Shown here one piece after another: positions 6,530 through 24,529 of a DNA stretch of 24,529 nt. The position numbers and the translations under genes were made by a program. Source of the stretch: a virus. Position 1 is the stretch's first letter; every line of letters begins with the position of its first letter. The notes beneath the pieces were generated by a model. It searched no databases. It saw nothing but the letters and a program-made list of their open reading frames with translations, and was not told where the DNA came from. The stretch is taken from positions 1 through 24,529 of IMG/VR virus record IMGVR_UViG_3300022188_000054; one strand, 5' to 3'.

Positions 6530-7365
6530 TGTGTCCACCACTCGGAAAAAACCTTACCTACAGGTCCTTCTTTCAAAGAAATGCAACTTCTTACGGCGAC
6601 GTCCTCCAACGCGTAAATCAGTGGATCCTCACCCCGCAGGTGTTCCGCATAACGTACATGTCCTTCGTCATCAAGACACAAACTTTCTTTCTCCGACCAA
6701 TATGCGATTTGCGCTACAGCGCGAGTTACCGCTGTCTCTATCCACTCGTCCCCAAGATCATAGACCACAACAAATTTGCGAGTCAAATGTGTGGAACTCA
6801 GCAACCGTTTTCCCTTCTCAGGAGGCTTTGCACCTATGAGCGCGACTTTTACAGGATCTCGGAAGCGTTTTGGTATTTTTTTGAGGGTAGGAAACCTCCT
6901 GATGAGCTTTTTCCAGCCGATTGCGGAACGCTTCCCTGGTTTCGCTTTCCTTTCGTCGACAAAACAGAGAATACGAGGTAGTTCGAACCTCACAACAAAA
7001 GCTGCGCGGTCGAAGGTGGCGCACCGCTCCCAATCTTCCGTAACAAACAAAGAGCGAACGCTCTCGAGGGTGGCGACCGCCTTGGGTTGCTTCTCAACAA
7101 CAAGCTCCCCGCGCCAAGGCTCAGTGTACACATCGTCTATGACAGCGACCAACTTCGCGGGTAAAACCTCTTGCTCAATTAAGCCCTTTAGTACTGGAAT
7201 AGTTACGTACGCGTATTCTCCTTCGACTTTTCCTTTTACGCTGAAGTCGACGCTTTCGCGAAAGGGGAATTGCAGCGCGACCTCGGGTGCTTTCTGTGTG
7301 CCCGAGACTGTTAACTTGAATTTGAGCGTTGTTGGTTTCACTAAGCTAATCTTGATGGAATCCAT
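6526..7365 (-). CDS. Unknown phage protein, second gene of minus-strand cassette A (279 aa)
   Basis: The start ATG (7363-7365) is preceded on the minus strand by GAGGTGG with a 7-nt spacer. The first ~95 residues form a beta-rich domain (LKFKLTVSGTQKAPEVALQF, later KLVAVIDDVYTEPW). It recalls a small beta domain seen in proteins of T4-like phages, but that is a weak resemblance. The middle is basic (KKLIRRFPTLKKIPKRFRDP). The C-terminal part is helical and acidic (TRAVAQIAYWSEKE, then YALEDVAVRSC). No membrane segment and no complete catalytic motif is visible; TRAVAQIAY lies where a zincin would have HExxH but lacks the ligands. The opposite frames give only arginine/serine-rich shadow ORFs. 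It overlaps the end of the 60-codon gene by 25 bp. Confidence 0.72.
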   Translation of the reverse strand: MDSIKISLVKPTTLKFKLTVSGTQKAPEVALQFPFRESVDFSVKGKVEGEYAYVTIPVLKGLIEQEVLPAKLVAVIDDVYTEPWRGELVVEKQPKAVATLESVRSLFVTEDWERCATFDRAAFVVRFELPRILCFVDERKAKPGKRSAIGWKKLIRRFPTLKKIPKRFRDPVKVALIGAKPPEKGKRLLSSTHLTRKFVVVYDLGDEWIETAVTRAVAQIAYWSEKESLCLDDEGHVRYAEHLRGEDPLIYALEDVAVRSCISLKEGPVGKVFSEWWTH

Positions 7366-7523
7366 TTGGCGTCCACCTCAATCTTCTTGCGCTGTTCCTT
7401 TTTCGCGACCAAAACAGCGCGAACTTCGACTTCAGGAGGCATAAGGTAACGGTAGCGGGTAATTTCTTTTTCTACAACACGCGCAACTGCAGGTCCCAAG
7501 CCACGGGTGATGAGCAGGCTCAC
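7341..7523 (-). CDS. Small protein, first gene of minus-strand cassette A (60 aa)
   Basis: The protein begins MSLLITRGLGPAVARV, resembling the short 'LVTRGLG' proteins of phage head/tail clusters, and continues into a beta-rich KEITRYRYLMPPEVEVRAVL segment. The GTG start has no Shine-Dalgarno, but a promoter-like TTGATT-N17-TACATT ends 6 nt before it, so transcription would begin at or next to the GTG (leaderless). It overlaps the 279-residue gene by 25 bp, so the pair is probably one transcript. Function is unknown. Confidence 0.6.
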   Translation of the reverse strand: MSLLITRGLGPAVARVVEKEITRYRYLMPPEVEVRAVLVAKKEQRKKIEVDAKWIPSRLA

Positions 7524-10012: not shown

Positions 10013-10228
10013 ATGAACAGAAGTCTAGCGCAGCTGTCCTTACTTTTTATCAAGACCATCACAAGAGAGTATGACATTATGTTGCACGAGTACGCTGGAT
10101 GTCCGCGTTCCAACCTGGAGTACAATGAACTGGGGCTCCGCAAGGGTTGTCTTCTTTGCCTGCTCTTGAAGGCAATTGATGATGAGTTGAAAACCTCACA
10201 GGACCATAATTCGGGAGGTGTATCATGA
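10013..10228 (+). CDS. Unknown small protein (71 aa)
   Basis: AAAGGA precedes the ATG by 6 nt. The product is helical with three cysteines (GCPRSN at 28-33, GCLLC at 45-49) and no clear membrane segment. Its TGA overlaps the protease start as ATGA (10225-10228), which supports its reality and suggests coupled translation. No family is recognised. Confidence 0.6.
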   Translation: MNRSLAQLSLLFIKTITREYDIMLHEYAGCPRSNLEYNELGLRKGCLLCLLLKAIDDELKTSQDHNSGGVS

Positions 10229-11031
10229 GGCTCACAGAAGCGCAAAGAAAAGAGTTTTACGAAAAGGCCCTCTACCCTTGCGTGAGGGTCAGAACAAACA
10301 AATCGGGCGGATCTGGTCAAGTGATATGGTCCAACGAACGAGACGGAACGTTTGTGCTGACTTGCGAGCATGTGGTTGACGACGCGATCACCATCAAGGA
10401 AGAGTGGTCTTCGGTCCTTCAGAGGATGGTGAAGAAGGACGTTTTGAGCGAGGTTTACGTTGACTTTTTCAAGTACGACCTGAAAGACCGAGCAGTTGGT
10501 GCTGAAGAGATAAAAGCGGAGATAATTGCCTACGACAAGAACGAAGACCTCGCTCTCCTGAGACTGCTGGACCCCACACCTCGCAAATACGTCGCGAAGG
10601 TCGCACCAGATGACTACGAAGTGAAGTATTTCGAAGAAGTGGTTACTATCGGTGCTGCTCTGGGTCACGAACCAATCGCTACAGTGGGGAACATTTGTGG
10701 GTTTAAAGATGTGATAGACAACAGGGACTATATGCTCTCAACAGCCCCGTCAGTATTCGGTAACTCAGGAGGTGCCACCTTCGCAACAAAGGACTGGACC
10801 TTAATTGGGATGCCCGCCAGAATTAGCGTCATTCTCACGGGTTTTGCGGCGGATCCGATCACTCACATGGGCTATATCATTCCTTACTGGAGGATCAACA
10901 AGTTCTTCCGCGATCAGATGATGGACTTTCTGCTCGACCCCTCCGTGTCGTATGAGGAGTGCTTGAAGAGAAGGGAAGAGGCCAGAAAGAAGTCCGAGCT
11001 GGAATTACTTCTGAAAGAAGGGAAGAAATAA
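10225..11031 (+). CDS. Trypsin/HtrA-like serine protease (phage-encoded)
   Basis: The protein has 268 residues with a chymotrypsin-fold catalytic triad in the correct order: His49 in LTCEHVV, Asp108 in NEDLALLRL and Ser181 in GNSGG. There is no signal peptide, PDZ domain or membrane helix, so it should act in the cytoplasm or within the virion. The charged C-terminus (REEARKKSELELLLKEGKK) may mediate assembly. It sits directly before the holin and endolysin and after the fibre. Possible roles are maturing a structural protein, cleaving a host or defence protein, or helping lysis; the sequence does not decide. Phage prohead proteases are usually of other folds. Confidence 0.82.
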   Translation: MRLTEAQRKEFYEKALYPCVRVRTNKSGGSGQVIWSNERDGTFVLTCEHVVDDAITIKEEWSSVLQRMVKKDVLSEVYVDFFKYDLKDRAVGAEEIKAEIIAYDKNEDLALLRLLDPTPRKYVAKVAPDDYEVKYFEEVVTIGAALGHEPIATVGNICGFKDVIDNRDYMLSTAPSVFGNSGGATFATKDWTLIGMPARISVILTGFAADPITHMGYIIPYWRINKFFRDQMMDFLLDPSVSYEECLKRREEARKKSELELLLKEGKK

Positions 11032-11058: not shown

Positions 11059-11526
11059 ATGATTGCTGGTGCAATCTTGGGGCTCGTCGGTTCAGTGGTT
11101 CCCGAACTGATTAAGATATGGAAGGAAAAGCAGGAGCACAAACAGGAATTGGAAATGCTCGAGCTACAGCTCAAGTACCAAAAGGAAATGGCACAGATTC
11201 GCGTGGCTGAAGCGGAAACGATGGCCGCGATCGAAATGGATAAAGCAGCCTACGAGTTCGCAAAGCCCGAACCAATAAGACCTACCGGCAAGTTCTGGGT
11301 TGACTTGCTACAAGTAATAGGGAACTTGTACAACCAAACAGTGAGACCTACGCTAACATACCTGATCGGAGCATGTTGGCTGATAGTCAAACTAGAACTG
11401 GCAAAACAGGCGGGTAGTTTGGCAACCGTTTGGACTCCGATGGACCAGGAGTTCGTTGCTTTGATTTTGACATTCTGGTTTGGTCGAAGGGCACTCAAGA
11501 GGACGTTTGGGAGGAAGGAGGGATGA
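11059..11526 (+). CDS. Holin, three-TM type (GTA-holin-like)
   Basis: The protein has 155 residues. An N-terminal hydrophobic helix (IAGAILGLVGSVVPELI) is followed by a long charged coiled coil (EKQEHKQELEMLELQLKY, to about residue 70). A conserved FWVDLLQVIGNLYNQTVRPTLTYL stretch then leads into two more membrane helices (about 98-118 and 131-145). This is the pattern of the Holin_3TM family of gene transfer agents and phages. AGGAGGTG precedes the ATG. Its TGA overlaps the endolysin ATG (ATGA), giving the usual holin-endolysin pair. It should form the membrane lesions that release the endolysin. Confidence 0.78.
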   Translation: MIAGAILGLVGSVVPELIKIWKEKQEHKQELEMLELQLKYQKEMAQIRVAEAETMAAIEMDKAAYEFAKPEPIRPTGKFWVDLLQVIGNLYNQTVRPTLTYLIGACWLIVKLELAKQAGSLATVWTPMDQEFVALILTFWFGRRALKRTFGRKEG

Positions 11527-11972
11527 CACCAAGATGTGTGGAACTCGTAAAACGATTTGAGGGATTTGTTCCACACATCTATCGGTGTCCTGCAGGATAT
11601 CCCACAATCGGATATGGACACGTGGTGAGACCTGGTGAGGAGGAGCTTTTCAAAGACGGAATTACAGAAGAGGAAGCGGAAAGATTGCTAATCACAGATT
11701 TGGCAAAAGTGGAACTAAAACTGTGGCCCCTGATAAAGGTCACGATACACCCGTGGATGATGGATGCTCTTATCAGCTTCTCGTTCAACGTCGGTCTCTA
11801 CGCCTTCAGAGCCTCCACCCTGCGCCGCAAACTGAACAGCAAGGATTTCGGTGACGCAGCGGATGAGTTTCTCAGATGGGTGTATGCGGGTGGGAGGAAA
11901 CTAAGGGGACTAGTAAGAAGGAGGAAAGCAGAAAGAGCGCTGTTTTTGGAAGGCTTGGAAGAAATGTTATGA
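11523..11972 (+). CDS. Endolysin, T4-lysozyme-type muramidase (GH24)
   Basis: The protein has 149 residues. Glu13 in LVKRFEGF is the catalytic acid, and PTIGYGHVV is the family signature. The active-site spacing is E-8x-C-5x-T: Glu13, Cys22 in place of the common Asp, and Thr28. This Cys variant is known from P1-type lysozymes and is compatible with activity. It has no signal-anchor sequence, so it needs the upstream holin. I chose the ATG at 11523, which overlaps the holin stop and follows AAGGAGGG, over the in-frame ATG at 11430. A perfect 13-bp inverted repeat lies in codons 4-19. The next gene overlaps by ATGA. Confidence 0.9.
   Translation: MTPRCVELVKRFEGFVPHIYRCPAGYPTIGYGHVVRPGEEELFKDGITEEEAERLLITDLAKVELKLWPLIKVTIHPWMMDALISFSFNVGLYAFRASTLRRKLNSKDFGDAADEFLRWVYAGGRKLRGLVRRRKAERALFLEGLEEML
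11532..11580 (+). repeat. Perfect 13-bp inverted repeat at start of endolysin gene
   Basis: The left arm AGATGTGTGGAAC (11532-11544) and right arm GTTCCACACATCT (11568-11580) are exactly complementary, separated by 23 nt. In mRNA this would fold into a stable stem beginning about 7 nt after the AUG, where it could slow initiation or early elongation of the endolysin. Confidence 0.8.
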
Positions 11973-13221: not shown

Positions 13222-14190
13222 GTGAAGGTCTTAGTTTGTGGTGCAGGCGGCTTTATCGGAGGTCACCTCGCAAAGTTCCTGTACAAAAAGGGTCTCTATG
13301 TGATTGCGGTTGACATCAAGTGGGACGGCTTTATCCCAGAACCCTTCTGTCACGAAAAAATAACAGGCGATTTGCGCGAATTCGAGATATGTATGGCGCT
13401 CACCAAAGGTGTCGATTGGGTTTTTCAGTTGGCCGCCGACATGGGTGGAATTGGATACATTACTCAAGTGGGTGCGGACATAATGAAGAACAACGCGCTC
13501 ATCAACATCAACATGCTGGAAGCCTCCACTCGAAACGGTGTTAAACGCTTTTTCTTTTCGTCCTCTGCGTGTGTTTACCCAGAGTACAAACAACTCGATC
13601 CCAACGTCACTGCGTTGAAGGAAGAAGACGCAATACCTGCGCAGCCCGATCAATTTTACGGGTGGGAAAAACTCTTCACAGAGAAATTGTGTGAAGCCTA
13701 TAAAAGGGACAAAGGCTTGGATGTGCGCGTGGCGAGGTTCCACAACATTTACGGTCCCTACGGAGTCTACGAGGGTGGTAGGGAGAAGGCACCTGCGGCC
13801 TTATGCAGAAAAGTGGCGCTAGCGAGGGACGGCGACGAGATTGAGATTTGGGGAGACGGGAAGCAAACGCGTTCCTTCTGTTACATCGACGACTGTGTGG
13901 AAGGGATCTGGAGGCTCATGAACTCGGACTACGACCAACCACTGAACATTGGGTCGGACGAGTTAGTCGCGATCGAAGACCTCGCAAAAATGATTATCGA
14001 AATCTCAGGGAAAAAACTCAGGCTAAAATACGACCTCTCGAAACCACAAGGAGTCAGAGGGAGGAACTCTGACAACACCAAAATCAAACAGGTTTTGGGT
14101 TGGGCGCCTTCTACTCCTTTAAGGGTGGGGATTGAGAAAACCTACAGGTGGATCGAACAACACATAAAGGAGCGCCTCCGCAAAGGATGA
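13222..14190 (+). CDS. GDP-mannose 3,5-epimerase-like NAD-dependent epimerase
   Basis: This is a 322-residue short-chain dehydrogenase/epimerase of extended type. GAGGFIGG (7-14) binds NAD. The GDP-mannose 3,5-epimerase hallmarks are unusually complete: QLAADMGGIGYI, FFSSSACVYPE with Cys117, YGWEK with Tyr146/Lys150, RFHNIYGPYG, GGREKAPAA with Lys189, WGDGKQTRSF, LNIGSDE and GVRGRNSDN. In plant GME the equivalent Cys and Lys do the acid-base epimerisation that converts GDP-D-mannose to GDP-L-galactose or GDP-L-gulose. The GTG start follows AAAGGAGGT by 5 nt. It is the first nucleotide-sugar gene of the window and probably feeds the glycosyltransferases downstream. Its TGA overlaps the next ATG. 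Confidence 0.88.
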   Translation: MKVLVCGAGGFIGGHLAKFLYKKGLYVIAVDIKWDGFIPEPFCHEKITGDLREFEICMALTKGVDWVFQLAADMGGIGYITQVGADIMKNNALININMLEASTRNGVKRFFFSSSACVYPEYKQLDPNVTALKEEDAIPAQPDQFYGWEKLFTEKLCEAYKRDKGLDVRVARFHNIYGPYGVYEGGREKAPAALCRKVALARDGDEIEIWGDGKQTRSFCYIDDCVEGIWRLMNSDYDQPLNIGSDELVAIEDLAKMIIEISGKKLRLKYDLSKPQGVRGRNSDNTKIKQVLGWAPSTPLRVGIEKTYRWIEQHIKERLRKG

Positions 14191-14654
14191 GCGAAACACT
14201 AAAAATACACCCCAGAGTCACCTACCTGAAATGGACGTCAGATAACGAATACTCTACCTTTTGTCTCCTCAACACAACCAAAGACGGAGAGAAAGTCGAA
14301 GTGTGCATCAGGAAAAAAGGGGAACAGTCCTTTCACGTTTGGATGACAAAAGAAAAGTTTTGGGAATGGCTCGGCGAAGGAGAGATTCTCGAGGTAGTAC
14401 CAGTGGAACACCCTGTTGAAGTACCGAAGCAAAGGAGGTGCGTACACTGTGGTGAGTATCTCCAGTTTAAGGCTGACCGCGGTTGGGTTCACCCTGAGGG
14501 AGGTCTCCACATGCAAAAGTGTTTGTCGTGCGGGTGGAAGGGAGCACCTCACCCACCTGCTATAGTCTGCCCCAATTGCGGTGCGCGCAGAATTTGCATT
14601 GATCACACAGCACAGGAGGGCAAAGATGGAACACCTAAAGCAGAAGGGTTCTGA
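14187..14654 (+). CDS. Zinc-ribbon protein with N-terminal beta domain (155 aa)
   Basis: Residues 1-80 have no recognised domain (TYLKWTSDNEYSTFCLLN, HVWMTKEKFWEWL). The C-terminal half has two likely zinc sites: C85/C88 with C112/C115, and C128/C131 with C137/H140 (CPNCGARRICIDH). The start at 14187 shares ATGA with the epimerase stop. It probably contacts nucleic acid or a protein partner; no specific function can be given. It overlaps the DUF3310 gene by 29 bp. Confidence 0.7.
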   Translation: MSETLKIHPRVTYLKWTSDNEYSTFCLLNTTKDGEKVEVCIRKKGEQSFHVWMTKEKFWEWLGEGEILEVVPVEHPVEVPKQRRCVHCGEYLQFKADRGWVHPEGGLHMQKCLSCGWKGAPHPPAIVCPNCGARRICIDHTAQEGKDGTPKAEGF

Positions 14655-14853
14655 GCACTATAAGGTGGACGGGGTCGAACCGATTGATCTGATGCGAAGC
14701 GGAGGCATGCTTCGGGATTTTTGTATCGGTAACATCATCAAGTACGCTTTTCGTAACCGCTCGCAACTCGGGCGCCCAATCTCAAAGAAAGACATGGACA
14801 AAATAATACACTACGCGGAAATTTTGAAAGCGTTGGCGGACGAAGAAACTTGA
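14626..14853 (+). CDS. DUF3310-family phage protein (75 aa)
   Basis: The DUF3310 core is clear: HYKVDGVEPIDLM, then FCIGNIIKYAFRN, then KKDMDKIIHYAEIL. The family is widespread in tailed phages and sometimes labelled nucleotide-kinase-like, but its role is unproven. I chose the ATG at 14626 because AGGAGGG lies 5 nt upstream; an in-frame ATG-like start at 14581 lies deep in the previous gene. This gene is good evidence that the sugar genes on both sides belong to a phage. Confidence 0.85.
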   Translation: MEHLKQKGSEHYKVDGVEPIDLMRSGGMLRDFCIGNIIKYAFRNRSQLGRPISKKDMDKIIHYAEILKALADEET

Positions 14854-14876
14854 CTTCCCGAACCATCACGTAAAAA
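14850..14876 (+). promoter_or_regulatory. Weak candidate promoter before the poly-Arg-tail gene
   Basis: TTGACT (14850-14855) and TAAAAA (14871-14876) are 15 nt apart, a short spacer, in one of the few small gaps in the operon. The gene at 14885 would start just downstream, with GGAG before its ATG. The case is weak. Confidence 0.25.
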
Positions 14877-14884
14877 ATGGAGAC

Positions 14885-15829
14885 ATGAAAGGAATCGTAG
14901 TTGCACCAAAGAACGTCAACCCTAAGGTCACCTCATTTGTGTGTCCCCGCGGAATCGGGTTGGGTGTTTTCGTTACGTTCCGTGACGCTTTTCTGAAGCG
15001 CAAAGAAGAAATCTTGCGAACACTTCGTCGCGTTGGTTCCATCGACAAAGTCGCTCATGTGTACCAGAAGTTAGGAGACGTTACGTGGATCCAATCAAAC
15101 TACGCTCAGTACTGTGTTAAGCGTTTTAACAAAGAACGAGTCCCTCAAGCACTGCACGAAATCTTCAGTCAAATCGAAGAGGAGATAAAGCGCGCAGAAC
15201 CACAAGACTTTGTACCAGAGAGGGATGAAGCGATCAAACTGTTCGCCATACATCTCACTTCTAGGTTCACACCCACGACTGAGTCTAACGCCGCTCTTAC
15301 TCTCTACGACATAGTCGACACTGACTCAGGTTTGATATTCTTTGAAGTTGCAGTCGACCGCGCCAACTTGACACAACATAAACTTTTGGAGCAATTCAAA
15401 CGCGCCACGGACGAGGAGGAAGTAAGGGCTCTGAAGATCGTCACTTGGAGAGGAAAGCGAGGGGCGTGGGTAACGACCAAAACAGGACAAAAAGTTTTCA
15501 TTGAGGAAGAGAAAATCCGACAGTACCGAAACTGGACGGATTCACTCATACGAGCGGGAGAGCTTCTCAGCTTGGTTAGTCTCGCCGATTTCGGACTGTA
15601 CGCCGCCTCTGACATGACTTGGATGACCTTCAGAAAGATGGCGAAACGCGCTGCCGCGGCGGGAAAGGGAAGGCGAGCGAGTGTGTATCTCCGTATCGCT
15701 AGACTTCTTGAAACCATCAGGATCCGTGCGTTCGAGTTCAACGTACTAACGCTTATGGCTGGGGTCGGTTCACTCGCTGTGGGCCTCCTCGGAAGGTACT
15801 TTGCGACAAGAAGGCGTCGTCGCAGGTAA
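14885..15829 (+). CDS. Unknown protein with WVT-GQK motif, C-terminal membrane helix and poly-Arg tail (314 aa)
   Basis: The N-terminal half is mixed and basic (LRTLRRVGSIDKVAHVYQKL). Residues 193-211 (GAWVTTKTGQKVFIEEEKI) carry a short motif of the kind seen in phage virion and toxin proteins (GGWVTIxGxxVFI). The helical C-terminal part has an Ala-rich segment and a hydrophobic helix (about 284-302) that ends in ATRRRRRR. The same WVT-GQK-FI motif and an Arg-rich C-terminus occur in the ADP-ribosyltransferase-like protein at 17502-18812. It could be an internal virion protein delivered to the host or an envelope-associated protein. GGAG precedes the ATG. Confidence 0.65.
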   Translation: MKGIVVAPKNVNPKVTSFVCPRGIGLGVFVTFRDAFLKRKEEILRTLRRVGSIDKVAHVYQKLGDVTWIQSNYAQYCVKRFNKERVPQALHEIFSQIEEEIKRAEPQDFVPERDEAIKLFAIHLTSRFTPTTESNAALTLYDIVDTDSGLIFFEVAVDRANLTQHKLLEQFKRATDEEEVRALKIVTWRGKRGAWVTTKTGQKVFIEEEKIRQYRNWTDSLIRAGELLSLVSLADFGLYAASDMTWMTFRKMAKRAAAAGKGRRASVYLRIARLLETIRIRAFEFNVLTLMAGVGSLAVGLLGRYFATRRRRRR

Positions 15830-15863
15830 CAACTTACGTTGAAACCTTTGGCGGAGGGTCTCG

Positions 15864-16202
15864 ATGAAGGGACTCAATGATACCGTTAAGGAGTACGTTA
15901 GGCTTGTTGAAGGGGCGAGAAAACGAGGCGAAGAGATCATCGAGGTACTCACCGAGGTTCTAAAACCTTTTATCCCTGACGTTTGCTTTACCCTCGGGTG
16001 GGACGACTCAGGTACCGACGTTATATGTTTGTGGTCGAACACATACATGAGCAGAACAGAAGGCGTGAGTCTCCTTGATATCTTGAGAGAAGAACTCGGC
16101 GAGCTCGCTCCTTACATAGATTGTCTCACGTCGATTTGCGTCCCAGAGGAAATTGCTAGTAAGGTGAGGAAGGCTTTACAAGAGGTCGTCACCCACTCTT
16201 AA
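15864..16202 (+). CDS. Unknown protein coupled to PaaK/CapK-like enzyme (112 aa)
   Basis: GGAGGG precedes the ATG. The product is alpha/beta with helices at both ends (MKGLNDTVKEYVRLVEGARK; EEIASKVRKALQEV) and a central VCFTLGWDDSGTDVICLW strand pair. It is not an acyl carrier protein, since no DSL-type attachment motif occurs. Its TAA overlaps the adenylating enzyme ATG (TAATG at 16200-16204), suggesting a 1:1 partner or linked function. Confidence 0.65.
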   Translation: MKGLNDTVKEYVRLVEGARKRGEEIIEVLTEVLKPFIPDVCFTLGWDDSGTDVICLWSNTYMSRTEGVSLLDILREELGELAPYIDCLTSICVPEEIASKVRKALQEVVTHS

Positions 16203-17482
16203 TGGTACACAAAGACCTCACCAACCCCCATTACGTTCGGTGGAAAAGTTTTCTCTCTCGCGCCCAGCATTGGTCAGTCGACCAAATCAAAACCTGGCAA
16301 CTGCAAAAACTACGCGAGGTAATCTCGAGGGCTCTCCTCACCCCAGGGTACAGGAGGAAGTTCGAGACAGCCGAGCTAAAAACCCTGGAAGACATTCGAA
16401 ACTTCCCCACCACCAGCAAGTACGAGATGATGAAGAACGTCGAAGATTTCACCTTGGAGTGTGGCGACTATGTTACCACCGGAGGCACGACAGGGCATCC
16501 CTTTGGTTTTTACCGCTCATGGTTGGCGTTTTCGCGCGAACTCGCCTCCAAAGCTCACCAGTACGAACGGGTAGGTTGGAAGGAAGGTGACCGTCAAATC
16601 GTGTTCAGAGGTTTGGTCCTGGACAATTTGACCGTCGAGGTTCCTGAGTTGTTCGAGCTGCGGTGCTCCTCCTACCATCTGGACGAAGAACACTTATCGC
16701 TGTTTGTTGAGGCGGCATGGAAATATCGACCTTTGTGGTTGAAGTGTTACCCCAGTGCCGGGTACCTTTTGGCGAAGCTGTTGGAGGCAACTGGGTTGGA
16801 ATTCCCGCCTCTGAAAGGCATACTGCTTGCCTCCGAAAACGTGTATGATTTCCAGCTGGAGAAGCTCAAAAAAGTGTTTGGTTGTACGATTTTCTCACAT
16901 TACGGACATTATGAGTGTGCCGCACTAGCTGGCTGGTGTAAGTACACAACCGATTACCACGTGCTCCCATTCTACGGTTATGTTGAGCTTCTGCGCCCCG
17001 GAACCGACACACCAGTTACTGAACCCGGAGAAGTGGGCGAGATTGTCGCAACCTCTTTTATCATGGACGCGACACTGTTTGTTCGTTACCGTACTGGGGA
17101 CTTGGCAGTTTACAAAGGTGAGGGGTGTCCCAAGTGTGGATTACCTTACCAGATCTGGGAGAGGGTCGAAGGCCGTGAACTCGAGTTCATCGTCACCTCA
17201 AAAGGCAGGTTAATCCCGCTCACGTGCATCAACATGCACGATGATGTGTTTGACGCCTTTTGGCAATTTCAACTGCGTCAAAGGACCCCGGGGGTAGTTG
17301 AGTTTCACTTCGTTCCACGCCTCGAGGGTAAAGCGCTGGAAAAGGGAATCGAGAAAGCGCGCAAAGCACTATCCGCAAAACTACCGGACACCCACCTTTT
17401 ATTCAGAAAGGTCAACGAGATACCGAGAACTGGTCGGGGAAAACACAAGTTTTTGGTGCAAGAGCTAAAGTTACCTTTTTAA
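16202..17482 (+). CDS. PaaK/CapK-like adenylate-forming enzyme
   Basis: The protein has 426 residues with the acyl-adenylate signatures of phenylacetate-CoA-ligase-like proteins: VTTGGTTGHPFGFYRS (from 91), YGHYE (234-238), RYRTGD (295-300) and a C-terminal RTGRGKHKF (409-417). The CPKCG pair (309-313) is where family members often carry 'CxCGR'. Members in capsule and polysaccharide clusters (CapK-type) are thought to activate a carboxylate as an acyl-AMP, possibly to acylate or amidate a sugar. With the dehydrogenase downstream making a uronate, amidation of that uronate is one possibility, but this is inference. It is convergent with cassette B, 19 nt apart, with no visible terminator between them. 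Confidence 0.83.
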   Translation: MVHKDLTNPHYVRWKSFLSRAQHWSVDQIKTWQLQKLREVISRALLTPGYRRKFETAELKTLEDIRNFPTTSKYEMMKNVEDFTLECGDYVTTGGTTGHPFGFYRSWLAFSRELASKAHQYERVGWKEGDRQIVFRGLVLDNLTVEVPELFELRCSSYHLDEEHLSLFVEAAWKYRPLWLKCYPSAGYLLAKLLEATGLEFPPLKGILLASENVYDFQLEKLKKVFGCTIFSHYGHYECAALAGWCKYTTDYHVLPFYGYVELLRPGTDTPVTEPGEVGEIVATSFIMDATLFVRYRTGDLAVYKGEGCPKCGLPYQIWERVEGRELEFIVTSKGRLIPLTCINMHDDVFDAFWQFQLRQRTPGVVEFHFVPRLEGKALEKGIEKARKALSAKLPDTHLLFRKVNEIPRTGRGKHKFLVQELKLPF

Positions 17483-17501
17483 GGTACCAAAGGAGACTCG
17501 C

Positions 17502-18812
17502 TTAGGTCCTTGGGTAAATCTTTCTGCGCCTTCTCACCCTCGAGTACTGCTTGATGACTTCCACGGTCCTCTTAGGAGAAACCTCCAAAAGGAACACATC
17601 TGGATCAGGGAGGCAAAGATAACAGTGCTCGATGTTTCGCAAAAAAGGACTCCCAAGTTCTCTGGTTCTCACGAGAGGGGCGATGTCCTCAAGGGGAATA
17701 AAGTAGTGGAAAACGTCGAACTTGAGAGGGTCAATTCGGCGAGGAATCACACCGCCGTACATTTTCTTCTGCTGAAGGAGTAAGCGGAAGTATTTTTCGG
17801 GGAGCAAGAATACTGAGTTGTCGTTGTACAGTGCGATGTAGTCAGTGTATCGAAGGACCGACTCCCAAGTCAACTCGTTTCGTGAGATCTTCTTCAGCGC
17901 TTTCTGTCTGAGGACTTTGGTGTTGTACCCCGCGAGTGTTTCAGTTCGCGCGAGAAAAGTGAGGTTCAGAACGCCATAGTCGGTTTCAACCTCCGCCACT
18001 CCTTTCGGGTACAGTTCAACAAACCGTGGGATTACAATGTCACGCGGCTTCACGACCTGCTGTTTCACTAAAAGTTCTTGTCCCGTACCCTTTCCCGCGA
18101 TTCTCCAAGAGAAGAAAATGTTGGAAATCGGTACCTCCTTTTTCACCACGAGTCCAGCGCCGCTCCTCTCAATCGTTGCGCGGTCTGCACCGGCGATCGC
18201 GTGAATCCGTGCCAAGTCTCTACTCTCGGTGAAAACGGTCAAGTTGTAGGTCTTTAGACCCACGCCGCGCATCAGATTTCGCATTACGCGCAACGAGCTC
18301 TCGGCATTGATCGCTCGATACAGGGTTATCTTGTTAGTGTTTGGGTACAACTTACGGTAGACTGCTTGGGTTAACGCCCAAAGGTCACACAGGTAACTAT
18401 GAGTAAGGGGATCTAACTTAATCTGCTGGTTTGCGAGAGCGCGTGCGGCGCTCAGATCAATTTTCTCGGACCAAAACCACCACAGTATTCTGTCGGCCTT
18501 CCGTACCACGTAAGGAGGGTACATGCTGCGGAGCAATCTGAAGGCGGGAATGCACGGAATCTCCTTGCCAAGAATCGTCTCGTGCACCACGCGGTTTAAG
18601 TTCGCCCTGGTGAGTTTCTCGGACCAGAACTCAACGCGACTTTCGAGAAGCTTGAAGTCCCTTGGGTACGAAAGCTTAAAGATTTTGTCTAGGGGGATAA
18701 AGCGTTTCTGCCCCGCAATAGTTACCCAGAATCCTTCCTTGATCTCGTTCCCGATTCGCAGGCGTACGATCTTCCTCCACGCCCCGAACAGGTAAATTAC
18801 CCTCTCGGTCAC
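17502..18812 (-). CDS. Putative ADP-ribosyltransferase-fold protein, second gene of minus-strand cassette B (436 aa)
   Basis: Residues 26-43 (EGFWVTIAGQKRFIPLDK) carry the WVT-GQK-FI motif shared with the protein at 14885. Residues 145-262 fit the R-S-E type ADP-ribosyltransferase core: ITLYRAIN with Arg166, then LTVFTESRDLARIHA (191-205) as the 'STS' strand and helix, and GTGQELLVKQ with Glu246. It lacks an ExE motif, so arginine specificity is not implied. The C-terminus is Arg-rich (SRVRRRRK). If active it would transfer ADP-ribose from NAD to a host target, as T4 Alt/Mod proteins do. The GTG start overlaps the 59-codon gene's TGA (GTGA), indicating coupling. The fold assignment is tentative; that this is a gene is clear. 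Confidence 0.7.
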   Translation of the reverse strand: MTERVIYLFGAWRKIVRLRIGNEIKEGFWVTIAGQKRFIPLDKIFKLSYPRDFKLLESRVEFWSEKLTRANLNRVVHETILGKEIPCIPAFRLLRSMYPPYVVRKADRILWWFWSEKIDLSAARALANQQIKLDPLTHSYLCDLWALTQAVYRKLYPNTNKITLYRAINAESSLRVMRNLMRGVGLKTYNLTVFTESRDLARIHAIAGADRATIERSGAGLVVKKEVPISNIFFSWRIAGKGTGQELLVKQQVVKPRDIVIPRFVELYPKGVAEVETDYGVLNLTFLARTETLAGYNTKVLRQKALKKISRNELTWESVLRYTDYIALYNDNSVFLLPEKYFRLLLQQKKMYGGVIPRRIDPLKFDVFHYFIPLEDIAPLVRTRELGSPFLRNIEHCYLCLPDPDVFLLEVSPKRTVEVIKQYSRVRRRRKIYPRT

Positions 18813-18988
18813 TTTTCCTGCTCCTTGATTTTCGCGAGAGCTTTTTTGAGAAACTCTCTGTCGAAGCGTTCAACAATCTTGTCGAGCTCGTTGGAATCGA
18901 CCCAGCAAATCAAGTCAACAGGATACGCTTTTGCTTTTGGGTCACGAAACCAAACGAACCATTCGAAACTGAGATCATCAAGGTTCAT
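18809..18988 (-). CDS. Small protein, first gene of minus-strand cassette B (59 aa)
   Basis: The frame reads MNLDDLSFEWFVWFRDPKAK on to a charged helical end (ERFDREFLKKALAKIKEQEK). Its TGA overlaps the GTG of the ADP-ribosyltransferase-like gene. The start has no clear Shine-Dalgarno, and a TTGAAA-N17-TACAAG promoter ends 6 nt before the ATG, so the transcript is probably leaderless. By position it could be an immunity or partner protein for the larger gene, but nothing shows this. Confidence 0.6.
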   Translation of the reverse strand: MNLDDLSFEWFVWFRDPKAKAYPVDLICWVDSNELDKIVERFDREFLKKALAKIKEQEK

Positions 18989-18994
18989 GTCTTT

Positions 18995-19023
18995 CTTGTA
19001 ACAGAGAGGAACGAGGTTTTCAA
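18995..19023 (-). promoter_or_regulatory. Predicted leaderless promoter of cassette B
   Basis: On the minus strand: -35 TTGAAA (19023-19018, 5/6), a 17-nt spacer, -10 TACAAG (19000-18995, 4/6), then 6 nt to the ATG at 18988. It has the same geometry as the cassette A promoter. It lies in the 36-nt gap between divergent genes and almost touches the DUF362 start at 19025. Confidence 0.55.
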
Positions 19024-19024
19024 G

Positions 19025-20335
19025 GTGAGAGTCGCGATCACGAGAGTGAAACCACTTTATCCGTCAAAGGCACCTTTTCATCCGAGCGAAAAGTACCCGG
19101 AGATGAACTCTCCAGTCCTTACCGAGTCAGACAACTTTGTGTACGGGGGAGTCAGAGAAATTTTTCGTTTACTGGGTTACGATGCCAAACACTACGGTAC
19201 GAAAGACTGGAACCCGTTAGGGGAAGTTATCAAACCAGGAGATACAGTCTTGGTTAAACCGAACTTGGTTTTCTCGAGATCGAGGAACATAGAAGCGACT
19301 GTAACACATCCTTCTGTGGTGCGCGCGGTTGTCGACTACGCACTAAAAGCAATTGGACCGACAGGGAAAGTCATAGTGGCGGACGCACCTCAGTACAATT
19401 GCAACTGGAGTGAGCTTCTCGATCGCACCGGTTTGAGCTCCTTAATTGAGTGGTATGGGTCAAAAGTAGAGTTTCTCGATCTACGACCTTATTGGAGCGA
19501 GGACTTCCATTGGTACTCGAGGATCAAACCGTTGGCGGGTGATCCACTTGGCGAGGAAACTATCGACTTAGGAACAAAGTCAAAATTGGAAGAATTGAAT
19601 TACCTTGATAGGTTGTATGGCGCGGCACCTTGGGTAAAAGAGACCCGCGAGTTCCACAAAAAAGGTACACACAAGTACGTGGTGTCTCGCACCTTTCTCA
19701 AGTCAAACGTTCTGATCCTTTTACCCAAGCTCAAGACACACAAGAAAGTCGGGATAACTTGCTGTGCAAAAAACCTGGTTGGAATTGTGACAAACAAAAA
19801 CTGCGTTCCTCATTTCCGAGTGGACGTAGACCAATATCCTCCAAACATTCCACGGCGGTCAAAACTTCTCTCGCGACTCGAGATGTTTATGTACGAGAAG
19901 TTCTTGGGCAGGCGCAAGTGGATATGCGACCTCCTGTATCGGGTTTTGTACGGGGTTTGGTTCAAAGATCTGCTAGGTCTCAAACTTCATCCTCACGACC
20001 GTGGAGGGTGGTACGGAAACGACACACTATGGCGCGCAATCCATGACCTACTGTACATCCTGCACAATTACGGTCCGCGAAGGGTTGTCTGCTTAGTCGA
20101 CGCGGTTGTTGCGGGGGAAGGTGAGGGTCCTCTAAACCCAACACCTAAACCTTTGGGACTTTTAATCGGGGGGTCTTCGATTGAAGCGGTTGACTGGGTC
20201 ACCGCTTCTCTGGTGGGGTTCGATCCCAAGAAGTTAAGATTCAAAGAACCAGACGAGAAAGTGGAGGTAGTCGGAGATGTCCCAAGCAAACCTATCAAAC
20301 TCAAGCCCCCAAGCGGGTGGATCGGATATCTTTAG
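19025..20335 (+). CDS. DUF362-family protein
   Basis: The protein has 436 residues. DUF362 hallmarks are VLVKPNLV (75-82), THPSVVRAVVDY (94-105), GKVIVADAPQ (114-123), LLPKLKTHKKVGIT followed by CCAKNLVG (from about 237), and GLLIGGSSIEAVDW near the end. DUF362 proteins often lie in polysaccharide and cofactor gene clusters, and no general reaction is established. No ferredoxin-type CxxCxxC cluster is present. The GTG start has GAGG 8 nt upstream (19013-19016). It opens the right-hand sugar operon and is divergent from cassette B; I could not see a convincing + strand promoter. Confidence 0.82.
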   Translation: MRVAITRVKPLYPSKAPFHPSEKYPEMNSPVLTESDNFVYGGVREIFRLLGYDAKHYGTKDWNPLGEVIKPGDTVLVKPNLVFSRSRNIEATVTHPSVVRAVVDYALKAIGPTGKVIVADAPQYNCNWSELLDRTGLSSLIEWYGSKVEFLDLRPYWSEDFHWYSRIKPLAGDPLGEETIDLGTKSKLEELNYLDRLYGAAPWVKETREFHKKGTHKYVVSRTFLKSNVLILLPKLKTHKKVGITCCAKNLVGIVTNKNCVPHFRVDVDQYPPNIPRRSKLLSRLEMFMYEKFLGRRKWICDLLYRVLYGVWFKDLLGLKLHPHDRGGWYGNDTLWRAIHDLLYILHNYGPRRVVCLVDAVVAGEGEGPLNPTPKPLGLLIGGSSIEAVDWVTASLVGFDPKKLRFKEPDEKVEVVGDVPSKPIKLKPPSGWIGYL

Positions 20336-21620
20336 CCGGGTCTCGGTCATTGGGCTGGGACGCCTAGGCGCACCTTTTGCTCTCTGCTGTGCCTCACGAG
20401 GTATTGAAACCATTGGGGTGGACAAAAACGAAGTTCGGGTTCTTCAGCTCAACTCAGGCGATTTTCCCTGGTACGAACCCAAAGCGCAAGATCTTCTCAC
20501 CTCGCACCGTTCTTTGTTGCACTTCACCACTCAGTACCACGAGGCAATCGAAAAAACCAACATCTCGGTCATCTTGACCCCCACTCCAAGCAAGCGAAGC
20601 GGAGAATTTTCTTCCGTTCACGTCACAGACGCGATTTCCTCATTGATCGACGCGCAAATTGAAGCTCGGAAACCAATACACTTGTACATTGTAGGTAGCA
20701 CGCTTTTCCCAGGGGCATCTCAAACCGAGATCCTTCCTTTGTTCCAGCGACTGGAAGAGAAAGGCCTTCAGTACCTCTACGCGTACTGCCCCGAGTTTGT
20801 CGCTTTAGGTTCAGCGATCGACGACTTTCTCAAACCGAGTTTTGTAGTGATCGGGGAAAAGGACAGTGTCTCAGGGGAAGCAGCACAAGCTTTCTACCAA
20901 CAGCTCCTGCTAAAAGAAGCGCACATCATCCGGACCAACCTGATTACTGCGGAGCTCGCCAAAGTCTTCTTGAACGTATTCCTCACTATTAAAATCTCTT
21001 TTGCAAACCTCGCAGGAATTCTGTGTGAAATGTTTCCCGGTGCGGACGTAGATGTAGTAACTCACATTTTGGGGAAGGACCCCAGAATCTCCCCGAAGTT
21101 TCTCAAGTGCGGTGCACCTTTCGGAGGGACATGTTTTCCGCGAGACGTAAACGCCTTCAGGGCCTTGATGTCAAAGTTCAACCAACATTTGCCCTTCCCC
21201 GAAGCCGTTCAAAAAGTTAACGAACTTGTGTTGTGGTATCTCGTGCGAAGGGTCGTCGAAACGGGGAAGCGCCGCGTTTGTGTGCTTGGTACTTCCTTTA
21301 AACCGGGAACGTCAGAAACCACTGAGTCACCCTCCCACAAACTGATCGACCTACTGCTTGCACACGGATTGCAAATTGTCGTGAGCGACCCCCTCGCGTT
21401 GGAACGCACAAGAAACATGTTTGGCGACCTTATTCAGTACGAAGAAGATCCAAAAGACGCAATCAATCGTTCCGAGGTCGTCATAGTAATGGTTCCACAC
21501 AAGGAATACAAAAAACTCTATCGTGCGTTCACATCACAACACATTGTGTTTGACGTCTGGAGAATCTACAGGGGAAAAGAGCTCCAGTGCGCCTATAATG
21601 GTTTCGGCCTTGGGACATGA
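20277..21620 (+). CDS. UDP-glucose/GDP-mannose dehydrogenase family enzyme
   Basis: The protein has 447 residues. It has an NAD-binding VIGLGRLGAPFA (GxGxxG at 26-31), ILTPTPSKRSGE, YCPEF, AELAKVFLN with Lys229 and Asn233, and the catalytic cysteine in GGTCFPRD (Cys286). The C-terminal domain has VCVLGTSFKPGTSETTESPS, the family's second signature. It oxidises an NDP-hexose twice to the uronate. UDP-glucose, GDP-mannose and UDP-N-acetyl-aminosugars are all possible substrates. The start at 20277 overlaps the DUF362 gene by 59 bp; GGAGG lies 10 nt upstream and no later in-frame start keeps the Rossmann strand. It is coupled to the next gene by ATGA. Confidence 0.88.
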   Translation: MSQANLSNSSPQAGGSDIFSRVSVIGLGRLGAPFALCCASRGIETIGVDKNEVRVLQLNSGDFPWYEPKAQDLLTSHRSLLHFTTQYHEAIEKTNISVILTPTPSKRSGEFSSVHVTDAISSLIDAQIEARKPIHLYIVGSTLFPGASQTEILPLFQRLEEKGLQYLYAYCPEFVALGSAIDDFLKPSFVVIGEKDSVSGEAAQAFYQQLLLKEAHIIRTNLITAELAKVFLNVFLTIKISFANLAGILCEMFPGADVDVVTHILGKDPRISPKFLKCGAPFGGTCFPRDVNAFRALMSKFNQHLPFPEAVQKVNELVLWYLVRRVVETGKRRVCVLGTSFKPGTSETTESPSHKLIDLLLAHGLQIVVSDPLALERTRNMFGDLIQYEEDPKDAINRSEVVIVMVPHKEYKKLYRAFTSQHIVFDVWRIYRGKELQCAYNGFGLGT

Positions 21621-22651
21621 AAGTCGCTTTTATAAAGCAACACTGGGACGTATTTGGTCCCTGGTCGAGTGTTCCCTGGCAAGATTGGGAAACTCTCTTT
21701 AAGTTTTGGCCTGGGAAAGCCTCGTTGTGGGAAGCAACGTGCCTACTGAAAGCCGACTGGTACGTAATTCCACAACAAACATCAAACTGGTACATCCAGG
21801 AAGTGATAAAGTACAGGCTCAAGCTCCTTACAGAGAAATACGTCACCAATATTACAAAAACTGACGAACTCCCCTTGCACCAATACGACATTGTGATCAC
21901 TCTCGATCCTATTCTCCCTCACCTTGTGGTTCCGCCTGGCGTTGTCTTTGCATATTTCTGCAACGAGAACAGCGATCCTAACTACATTGCTTCCTTGCGA
22001 AAACCCTTTGGGAAGTACGATTTGTTTCTCGCACACGCTCTGGACGCGCCAAATGACTTCGACCATCTCCCCGCTGCAGTCTCCTTCCCGTATCCTCGAC
22101 ATCCAAAACTGGTGCGCAAGCTGTTTGCGAAACACAAAGAAGAAAAAGTTTGGGTTGAATGGAGAACGCTCACAACGCTTGCGCGTACGGAGCTATACGG
22201 TCCAAAGGCGGAAGGCGTACTGAATGACCTACAGAAAAAGCTGAAGTGCAAGACGGTATGCTACAGCAGAGTTAACAGGTCCCCTTACAGTATAACCGAC
22301 CCACCCGCGTTTGGGGACGCAAAAACCTATCTCCAACAATTGGGGACATGTAAATACTACATCGCGGTTGGTCGGAAAGGTGGCGCAGGACAAGGCATTG
22401 TTGACGCAGCGTCCGCAGGGTGTTTGTGTATCGGGGACAAGACACGTCCTTATCACCGCATTATCTGTTACCCCGATATGTTGTGTGACAGCATCGAAGA
22501 GGCGATCCAGAAGTTTCGCAAACTGCACGAAGACTCTCGATTGCAAAAGAAAGTTCGAACCTGGCAGGACATTAAGCTGTTTGACGAGTTCGTAAAACGA
22601 CCCTTGAGGCTTCTGAAAAAAGCGGTAAGACTGAAACGAGGGAACGCGTGA
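21617..22651 (+). CDS. GT-B-type glycosyltransferase
   Basis: The protein has 344 residues. The N-terminal half has FGPWSSVPWQDWETLFKFW and LLKADWYVIPQQ, then YDIVITLDP and GVVFAYFCNENSD. The C-terminal half has the donor-side pattern YYIAVGRKGGAGQGIVDAAS, then SAGCLCIGD and a final charged helix. This is the shape of GT4-like or 'exostosin-like' GT-B transferases, although the usual GT4 EX7E motif is not clear. ATG overlaps the dehydrogenase stop (ATGA), and its TGA overlaps the next GTG (GTGA). Donor and acceptor are unknown. Confidence 0.65.
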   Translation: MKVAFIKQHWDVFGPWSSVPWQDWETLFKFWPGKASLWEATCLLKADWYVIPQQTSNWYIQEVIKYRLKLLTEKYVTNITKTDELPLHQYDIVITLDPILPHLVVPPGVVFAYFCNENSDPNYIASLRKPFGKYDLFLAHALDAPNDFDHLPAAVSFPYPRHPKLVRKLFAKHKEEKVWVEWRTLTTLARTELYGPKAEGVLNDLQKKLKCKTVCYSRVNRSPYSITDPPAFGDAKTYLQQLGTCKYYIAVGRKGGAGQGIVDAASAGCLCIGDKTRPYHRIICYPDMLCDSIEEAIQKFRKLHEDSRLQKKVRTWQDIKLFDEFVKRPLRLLKKAVRLKRGNA

Positions 22652-23379
22652 TTAGCGTAGGGACAGCTCCCAAGCGGTTCGTCGGGAAGCTTGCGAAGCT
22701 CCAAGAACTCGCGATACGAAGCTGGTTTGAGTTCACCGACGACATAATTTTGTTCGCAAAGTTTGTGCCTCCACTTGAAGGGGTACGTGTTTTCGAGGTG
22801 AAAACAAGCGACAGGTCCGACGCTCCCATTGTAAGCGAGTTGTTCAAATCTCTGGATTGCCTTGGTACTCACTCAGTTTTAATGTACACAAATGCAGACA
22901 TCGTCTTTCTAGGCGGGGTTGAGAAAGCGGTTCGATCGGTTCTTAATCGGACGGAGAAAAACTTCCTGATTGTAGGGCAACGGTGGGATTGCGATTGGGA
23001 AGACACAATGACGTTGGAGGATATACGAAGGGCGCCCAAAAAGCTTCACGCGCCAACAGGGATTGATTACTTCATCTTTCCCAAAGGCTTTTGGGGTAAA
23101 ATCCCACCTTTTGTGTTAGGTCGAACTTGCTGGGACAACTGGCTTCTTTCGGATGCGCTCAGACGCGGTGCGTTCGTCGTCGACGCAACCCAATGCATTT
23201 GGGCGGTCCACCTAAACCACGATTGGTCACACCTCAAGGGAGGGAAGGAAGAAGCATGGTCGGGACCTGAGGCAATGTTCAACCGTTCGCTGCTCACGCG
23301 CGAGGAGCTAGAACGTGGAAGAATTGACCGCACAAAATGGATCCTAACCTCAGAAGGGGAGGTGATCGAGCGTGGATGA
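22648..23379 (+). CDS. GT-A-like glycosyltransferase (TNADI/WDNW family)
   Basis: The protein has 243 residues. LMYTNADIVF (79-87) fills the place of the DxD metal motif. The later GIDYFIFPKGFWG, VLGRTCWDNWLL and VHLNHDWSHLKGG followed by GPEAMFN are hallmarks of a family of small GT-A transferases common in polysaccharide and metagenomic clusters. The GTG start shares bases with the preceding TGA. It should transfer a sugar to a surface glycan or virion protein; the substrate is unknown. It overlaps the GT2 gene by 8 bp. Confidence 0.75.
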   Translation: MISVGTAPKRFVGKLAKLQELAIRSWFEFTDDIILFAKFVPPLEGVRVFEVKTSDRSDAPIVSELFKSLDCLGTHSVLMYTNADIVFLGGVEKAVRSVLNRTEKNFLIVGQRWDCDWEDTMTLEDIRRAPKKLHAPTGIDYFIFPKGFWGKIPPFVLGRTCWDNWLLSDALRRGAFVVDATQCIWAVHLNHDWSHLKGGKEEAWSGPEAMFNRSLLTREELERGRIDRTKWILTSEGEVIERG

Positions 23380-24241
23380 TGTAAAAATTTCCTTCATCAC
23401 TATTGTTCTCAATGGCATGCCTTTTCTGGAGTACTCCCTGAAAGCCATTTATCCTTTTGCGCACGAAGTAATCATTGTTGAAGGGGCGGTTAGTGCAGCA
23501 AGATTTGCAGCAAACCCCGATGGGTCATCAAAAGACGGAACCGTAGAGTTTATCAAAAAGTTCCCCGATCCTGACAGGAAGATCAAACTCATCCAAGGCC
23601 TCTGGCCCGAAAAGGTCGATATGCAGGATACCGCACTCAGATACGTCACCGGAGATTACATATGGTTGGTCGACTCGGACGAAGTTTACAAAAGAGATCA
23701 CATTTTGCGCATCAAGCAATTTTTGCGCGACAACCCCGACGTTACCCAAATCAATTTCATTCCTTACAACTTCTGGAAAGGCTTGGATTACATCTTTGTG
23801 TCTTCGGTTTTCGAACTGCCTTCCATGCATTACAGGCGGATCTTCAGGTTTAGAAAGGACGCTCGATTTATCAGTCACCGTCCACCCACCTTACTGTACA
23901 CTTCCTCCGGTGTAACCGCCGACAGACTGAAAGTCGTTGACGGGTTTCAGACCAGACGGATGGGCCTCGAAATGTTTCACTACAGTTATGTTCTAAAAGA
24001 ACAAGTGTACCAAAAAATCCAACTGTACTCTCGTTACGGATGGGGGAACATTTGGGGTGTTGACTTGAGAAGATGGTACAACGAATGCTTCCTGAAGTGG
24101 ACACCTGAAAACAGAAGAGAAATCGAAAAGGAGTGGGGAGTTTGGACCGGCGACAAACTATCCTACACCGTAAAGTTCGAAGGAACCCACCCCGAAGTGA
24201 TGGAAGACTTCGTTAAAAAGTACGGGAGGAACTTTTACTAA
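23372..24241 (+). CDS. GT2-family glycosyltransferase
   Basis: The protein has 289 residues. It has the N-terminal GT2 Rossmann start (ISFITIVLNGMPFLEYSLKA), KDGTVEFIKKF, and the metal-binding DSD (101-103) in YIWLVDSDEVY. No membrane helices are seen, so it is a soluble or peripherally bound transferase. GTG start after GGGGAGG in the end of the previous gene. Part of the same head-to-tail operon as the genes around it. Confidence 0.83.
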   Translation: MDDVKISFITIVLNGMPFLEYSLKAIYPFAHEVIIVEGAVSAARFAANPDGSSKDGTVEFIKKFPDPDRKIKLIQGLWPEKVDMQDTALRYVTGDYIWLVDSDEVYKRDHILRIKQFLRDNPDVTQINFIPYNFWKGLDYIFVSSVFELPSMHYRRIFRFRKDARFISHRPPTLLYTSSGVTADRLKVVDGFQTRRMGLEMFHYSYVLKEQVYQKIQLYSRYGWGNIWGVDLRRWYNECFLKWTPENRREIEKEWGVWTGDKLSYTVKFEGTHPEVMEDFVKKYGRNFY

Positions 24242-24244
24242 CGG

Positions 24245-24529
24245 ATGACATTGGACCTAGTAGGCAAAACAATCGTTTGGATACGGACCGATTCAATTGG
24301 TGACAACGTGTTGGCGCTCCCAGTTCTCGATCACATCATAATGTGCGGAAGACCCTCTCGTGTTATAGTTGTGTGTCAAAAACACATCGCCGAGCTGTAC
24401 GCACCCTATGCGGACCGTATCATCGGGTTTGTCAAACCCGACATCTACGTAGACTCTGTTTATCGAAACTGGATCGTTAAGCAGATTCAAAGCGAGAAAC
24501 CCGATGTAGCTATAAACACTGTGTACTCG
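24245..24529 (+). CDS. GT9-like (heptosyltransferase family) glycosyltransferase, N-terminal part (3' truncated by window)
   Basis: The visible part is 95 residues. The start KTIVWIRTDSIGDNVLALPVLDHI is the characteristic GT9 N-terminus ('RxDxIGDxxLxxPxL'), followed by a Rossmann beta-alpha pattern (RVIVVCQKHIAELY; KPDVAINTVYS). The ATG lies 3 nt after the preceding stop. It is the second GT9-like gene in the window after 7583-8467. The rest of the gene and probably more of the operon lie beyond the window. Confidence 0.8.
   Translation, partial: MTLDLVGKTIVWIRTDSIGDNVLALPVLDHIIMCGRPSRVIVVCQKHIAELYAPYADRIIGFVKPDIYVDSVYRNWIVKQIQSEKPDVAINTVYS

What the first reader, a model, noticed from the sequence alone, without database searches (positions are those of the whole stretch)
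17502..18812. Candidate ADP-ribosyltransferase in a minus-strand cassette
Arg166 (LYRA), FTES (194-197) and Glu246 (QELL) occur in the right order and spacing for the R-S-E ADP-ribosyltransferase fold, with a WVT-GQK module in front and an Arg-rich tail behind. A 59-residue gene is translationally coupled upstream. Such enzymes in phages reprogram host transcription or act as toxins.
Basis: partly seen in the sequence, partly recalled or inferred. Interest (0 to 1): 0.68.

Follow-up and report, generated by a model that had tools for sequence, protein, structure and literature searches.

The report
Diverged phage ADP-ribosyltransferase with altered active site
This virus carries a gene whose middle part is distantly related to enzymes that attach ADP-ribose to proteins, nearest among those tested to the bacterial nitrogenase-inactivating enzyme DraT; two normally invariant active-site residues are replaced, so it is probably an unusual member of a known kind of phage enzyme, with its target unknown.

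Summary
The gene is real: GTG start, AAGGAG ribosome-binding site 8 nt upstream, 436 codons, GTGA overlap with a 59-codon gene. It has no detectable close relative in viral contigs, phages, plasmids or species genomes. Its residues 141-262 are a remote relative of the catalytic half of DRAT (PF07357). Pfam gives E 0.0015-0.008, below the curated cut-off. hhalign against 27 DRATs scores 38, against at most 22.6 in 300 shuffles, 10-21 for the 20 other window proteins tested, and 12-34 for nine genuine ModA/ModB enzymes. ITLYR, NL..FT.....A, VP..(K/N)IFF and ELLV line up.

The ADP-ribosyltransferase (ART) reading is therefore right in kind. The motif reading is only half right. R166 and E246 align with the invariant Arg and Glu. 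'FTES' is not the catalytic Ser: that position (27/27 DRAT, 9/9 Mod) is Val193, and the first Glu of E-x-E is Gly244. Both AlphaFold2 runs failed (mean pLDDT 37 and 33), so the fold test is undecided. The coupled 59-residue gene says little, because most neighbouring genes here overlap. It is probably a diverged ART or NAD-consuming accessory ('moron') protein acting on an unknown host target: a new variant of a known kind.

The parts
17502..18812 (-). 436-aa basic protein (pI about 10) with a central diverged ADP-ribosyltransferase domain
18027..18392 (-). diverged ART domain, residues about 141-262, homologous to the catalytic half of DRAT
18315..18317 (-). Arg166, in ITLYR; aligns with the Arg invariant in DRAT (27/27) and Mod (9/9)
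18222..18236 (-). V193-F-T-E-S197: motif II; canonical Ser position is Val193, T195 kept, A201 (just downstream) matches the invariant Ala
18105..18134 (-). VPISNIFFSW (residues 227-236), matches DRAT VP..KIFF
18069..18083 (-). G244-Q-E246-L-L: motif III; Glu246 aligns with the catalytic Glu, residue -2 is Gly instead of Glu
18681..18740 (-). N-terminal WVT-GQK segment (residues 25-44)
15455..15517 (+). second copy of the WVT-GQK segment, in gene 14885-15829
   Evidence: shuffle frequency 0.049: suggestive only
18809..18988 (-). 59-aa acidic (pI 5.0) gene upstream; its stop overlaps the GTG start (GTGA)
   Evidence: no family match
18821..18826 (-). AAGGAG Shine-Dalgarno of the 436-aa gene, 8 nt before GTG

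Best explanation
A minus-strand two-gene accessory ('moron') cassette sits in the accessory/sugar-gene region downstream of the lysis genes of a tailed-phage contig. Its main product is a 436-residue basic protein. The central domain (about residues 141-262) is a highly diverged ADP-ribosyltransferase, nearest among the families tested to the catalytic half of DRAT. It most likely binds NAD+ through Arg166 and the FT/VP..IFF scaffold, activates it with Glu246, and either transfers ADP-ribose to a host macromolecule or hydrolyses NAD+. The loss of the motif-II Ser (Val193) and of the first Glu of E-x-E (Gly244) suggests an acceptor other than the classical arginine, or NADase activity. Shown here: the ORF, its translation signals, the remote homology, and the residue substitutions. 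Inferred: NAD+ binding, catalysis, accessory role. Unknown: target, timing of expression, role of the 59-residue protein.
For: Pfam DRAT is the only family hit to the domain (E 0.0081 whole protein, 0.0015 for the domain). hhalign of the domain against 27 DRATs: score 38.2, E 3.9e-5, against a best of 22.6 in 300 shuffles. The 20 other window proteins tested score 10.4-21.0. Genuine phage ARTs (ModA/ModB) score 11.6-33.5 against the same DRAT profile, so the window protein is at least as close to DRAT as proven ARTs are. An ordered four-motif pattern is absent from 20,000 shuffles and from the other window proteins tested. R166, T195, A201, VP..IFF and E246 align with conserved columns. Even the weak single-sequence model puts a helix before R166 and alternating strands at the three motifs (very low confidence).
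Against: The Pfam score (15.8-18.3 bits) is below the curated 25-bit cut-off. Invariant Ser and first Glu are replaced. No confident structure, and the fold search on the poor model gave no ART (uninformative). No close homologues, so conservation of R166/E246 in its own family cannot be tested. The hhalign probability is 48-70%, not above 90%. The patterns were written after seeing the sequence.
Confidence: 0.6

Rival explanations
1. A pseudo-ART: the fold is kept but catalysis is lost, and the domain serves to bind NAD+, ADP-ribose or a protein partner, for example as an inhibitor or decoy against NAD-using host defences.
For: Two positions invariant in DRAT (27/27 Ser, 26/26 Glu present) and Mod (9/9) are replaced: Ser to Val193 and the first Glu of E-x-E to Gly244.
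Against: The Arg and the catalytic Glu, which matter for NAD+ orientation and oxocarbenium stabilisation (PMC10789625), are both kept. ARTs tolerate drift at the other positions, and that review calls the triads only partially conserved.
Confidence: 0.2
2. A toxin-antitoxin or immunity pair: the 59-residue protein (pI 5) binds and neutralises the basic ART-like protein (pI 10), with the antitoxin gene first and translationally coupled.
For: Small gene first, GTGA overlap, opposite charges. ART toxin-antitoxin pairs exist in some phages (PMC9503650).
Against: No match of the 59-aa protein to any family. No ADP-ribosylhydrolase or macro-domain family was hit among the window proteins scanned. 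Most neighbouring genes in this contig overlap, and a second minus-strand pair (60 aa + 279 aa, 7523-6526) has the same layout, so layout alone says little.
Confidence: 0.12
3. A virion-packaged ART injected with the DNA, like T4 Alt, with the WVT-GQK segment as a packaging or processing element.
For: About 44% of phage ARTs lie in contexts that suggest head packaging (PMC9503650). The WVT-GQK segment is shared with another window protein.
Against: The gene is on the opposite strand to the structural genes, and no head gene was recognised in this contig. No MuF or portal domain. The shared segment is reached by 4.9% of shuffles.
Confidence: 0.12
4. Chance resemblance: the protein is an unrelated orphan with short ART-like motifs.
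For: Only sub-threshold family scores, no homologues, no confident model.
Confidence: 0.13

Closest known systems
DRAT / DraT, dinitrogenase reductase ADP-ribosyltransferase (PF07357)
   Same: Catalytic half aligns over about 110 residues: ITLYR, NL..FT.....A, VP..(K/N)IFF, KG..ELLV.
   Different: The DRAT N-terminal half has no convincing counterpart. Insert of about 12 residues between motif II and VP..IFF. Ser to Val193, first Glu to Gly244. N-terminal WVT-GQK segment and a C-terminal extension of about 170 residues. No nitrogenase context, no DraG.
Phage T4 ModA/ModB mono-ADP-ribosyltransferases
   Same: Phage-encoded ART superfamily with LYR, SF(S/T)-type motif II and a catalytic Glu; also score against DRAT.
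   Different: Window protein scores only 21.4 against the Mod family (shuffle maximum 18.8) and lacks Mod's invariant Ser and E-x-E.
T4 Alt/VIP2 and MuF-fused or polyvalent-protein ARTs of phages
   Same: ART embedded in a longer phage protein (described in PMC9503650).
   Different: No MuF, portal or other head domain; not compared directly by sequence here.
ART-ARG (DraT-DraG-like) toxin-antitoxin pairs reported in some Aeromonas phages
   Same: Phage-borne ART in a system comparable to DraT-DraG (PMC9503650).
   Different: No ADP-ribosylhydrolase found next to it; the partner is a 59-aa orphan.

Membership tests
DRAT (PF07357) | Whole-protein score above the curated cut-off of 25 bits | tested here: not met
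   15.8 bits whole protein, 18.0-18.3 bits for the domain
DRAT (PF07357) | Catalytic-half homology | tested here: met
   hhalign 38.2 against a best shuffle of 22.6; collinear motifs
DRAT (PF07357) | N-terminal half (NLCNLPPWVIAS...IQGVR...NSYLRFLRGW) | tested here: not met
   The HMM hit starts at profile position 152-157; hhalign extends weakly over residues 43-140 without those motifs
DRAT (PF07357) | Acts on nitrogenase Fe protein | not testable with these tools
   No nitrogenase genes recognised in the window; target unknown
R-S-E clade ART | Motif I Arg ([LIV][YF]R) | tested here: met
   R166 aligns with the invariant Arg
R-S-E clade ART | Motif II Ser | tested here: not met
   Val193 at the position that is Ser in 27/27 DRAT and 9/9 Mod
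R-S-E clade ART | Motif III [EQ]-x-E | tested here: not met
   G244-Q-E246: catalytic Glu kept, residue -2 is Gly
R-S-E clade ART | Split-beta ART fold | tested here: inconclusive
   AlphaFold2 single-sequence models, mean pLDDT 37 and 33; fold search meaningless
R-S-E clade ART | NAD+-dependent ADP-ribose transfer | not testable with these tools
   needs an assay
Type II toxin-antitoxin pair with ART toxin | Known antitoxin domain (ARG, macro, NADAR, Dmd) next to the ART | tested here: not met
   Family scans of the 59-aa protein and neighbours

The most novel reading that the evidence does not exclude
A new ART family in viruses (possibly of hot-spring bacteria): a DRAT-related catalytic core with an R-V-E active site and G-x-E in place of E-x-E, which modifies a non-arginine acceptor or degrades NAD+, controlled by a coupled 59-residue partner.
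Probability: 0.2. Interest if true: 0.6.

Novelty: new variant of a known kind. Interest (0 to 1): 0.36.

Why it matters
ADP-ribosyltransferases are a recurrent phage tool for taking over host machinery, and many are fast-evolving and hard to name by family searches. This one links a phage orphan to the DraT branch, known from nitrogen-fixing bacteria. It also has substitutions at two positions thought to set NAD+ orientation and acceptor choice, so if active it would test how far the R-S-E active site can change.

Tried and rejected
Homologue searches with the ART protein found nothing usable: viral contigs, species genomes, phages, plasmids (one E=5 hit antisense to an annotated gene). Scans with other window proteins gave only two remote tail-module relatives, a WVT-GQK DNA pattern gave one hit, whose locus showed nothing related, and an ART+DRAT alignment scan gave nothing. 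ART protein against 12 genomes holding epimerase relatives, the phylum of the WOR-3 genome and the phylum of the Kapabacterium genome: only noise. DRAT-type profile A1 against the phyla of G007 and G003: nothing but one frame with stops. A consensus DRAT domain against phages found no real hit. AlphaFold2 without homologues failed twice, so the fold search was discarded. The idea of a second, degenerate ART repeat in the C-terminal half was rejected (29.6% of shuffles as good). A direct comparison with ADP-ribosylating toxin families was left out as unnecessary.

Full report
THE OBSERVATION. The window is the whole of a 24,529-base virus record. ORF 17502-18812 on the minus strand is open for 436 codons from GTG. 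An AAGGAG Shine-Dalgarno lies 8 nt upstream, and the start overlaps the stop of a 59-codon gene as GTGA. Base composition is the same as in the rest of the contig (about 50% GC), with the skew reversed as expected for a minus-strand gene. The cassette lies between a PaaK-like adenylate-forming gene (ends 17482) and a DUF362 gene (starts 19025), both on the plus strand, in the accessory region downstream of the lysozyme gene at 11430-11972. The loose ordered pattern is rare in shuffles (5 of 20,000), but a stricter R-S-E pattern is not matched.

HOMOLOGY. Pfam-A gives one hit, DRAT PF07357: E 0.0081 for the protein, 0.0018 and 0.0015 for two versions of the domain, all below the 25-bit curated cut-off. 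PHROGs, NCBIfam and PADLOC give nothing relevant. To test this weak hit, DRAT genes were collected from 395 genomes of the phylum of a proteobacterial genome and 27 were aligned. With filters off, the window protein outscored all 2000 of its own shuffles against that profile (9.4 bits, 12.0 for the domain, against 7.1). hhalign of the domain gave score 38.2 and E 3.9e-5, against a best of 22.6 in 300 shuffles. The other 20 window proteins tested gave 10.4-21.0. As a yardstick, nine genuine phage ARTs of the ModA/ModB family gave 11.6-33.5 against the same DRAT profile, and the window domain gave 21.4 against the Mod family (shuffle maximum 18.8). The window protein is thus as close to DRAT as proven ARTs are, and closer to DRAT than to Mod.

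ACTIVE SITE. The alignment is collinear over about 110 residues: YPNTNKITLYRAI with ..P....ITLYRG; NLTVFTESRDLARI with NLNSFTSDFERAWE; EVPISNIFFSW with VP..KIFF; KGTGQELLV with KGEEEVLV. R166 and E246 match invariant residues. The first Ser of motif II, invariant in 27 DRAT and 9 Mod sequences, is Val193. The register is fixed without gaps by T195 and by A201, an Ala invariant in both families. The first Glu of E-x-E is Gly244, allowing a one-residue shift in the loop (without that shift Gln245 would face the catalytic Glu, but ELLV then falls out of step with E-[VY]-L-V). According to PMC10789625 the Glu stabilises the reacting NAD+, and Arg-Ser hold NAD+ in its strained form. Keeping Arg and Glu while losing Ser and the second acidic residue is compatible with an altered enzyme or with a pseudo-enzyme.

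STRUCTURE. Two single-sequence AlphaFold2 jobs gave mean pLDDT 37 and 33. The secondary structure of the first is compatible with an ART core (helix 135-155, short strand at 163-165, strand 188-195, strands 213-228, 235-239, 246-250), but at this confidence it is not evidence. The Foldseek result was discarded.

RELATIVES AND HOST. No close relative was found anywhere searched. The epimerase gene 13222-14190 is most like genes from WOR-3 (71% identity), Aerophobetes, HR21 and Kapabacteria, several of which are known from hot springs (general knowledge), so a thermophilic bacterial host is possible but not shown.

FUNCTION. Phage ARTs are well documented: T4 Alt/ModA/ModB, MuF-fused and polyvalent ARTs, rare toxin-antitoxin forms, and an ART-ARG pair in Aeromonas phages compared with DraT-DraG (PMC9503650). 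Here the gene is on the opposite strand from the structural genes and is not linked to recognised head genes or to an ADP-ribosylhydrolase. An independently expressed accessory gene acting on the host is therefore the best reading. The 59-residue protein is acidic and the 436-residue protein basic, which fits binding. But most neighbouring genes here overlap, and another minus-strand pair at 7523-6526 has the same layout, so a toxin-antitoxin reading is not favoured.

VERDICT. ART superfamily membership about 0.85; active NAD+-using enzyme about 0.6; classical R-S-E active site not met. New variant of a known kind, moderate interest.

Noticed in passing
6526-7523 (-): A second minus-strand pair with the same layout: a 60-aa gene (7341-7523) overlapping a 279-aa orphan (6526-7365), no Pfam, PHROG or PADLOC match, no viral relatives.
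   Followed up: partly
14885-15829 (+): 314-aa orphan sharing the WVT-GQK segment with the ART protein; it ends in a hydrophobic stretch followed by an Arg run (ATRRRRRR).
   Followed up: partly
13222-24529: Dense set of sugar and cofactor genes for a small phage contig: epimerase (closest to WOR-3, 71%), UDP-glucose/GDP-mannose dehydrogenase, GT2-type glycosyltransferase, PaaK-like ligase, DUF362.
   Followed up: partly
4454-6529 (+): Tail-fibre-like protein with imperfect repeats of a ..ATVQAIKAKTDNLPSDPASQSAIESKI.. coiled module; its 5' part has unusually low GC (0.37 at 4501-5500).
   Followed up: no
10225-11031 (+): Protein matching a phage protease family (phrog_9683, E 8e-11), followed by a holin-like gene and a phage lysozyme.
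   Followed up: no
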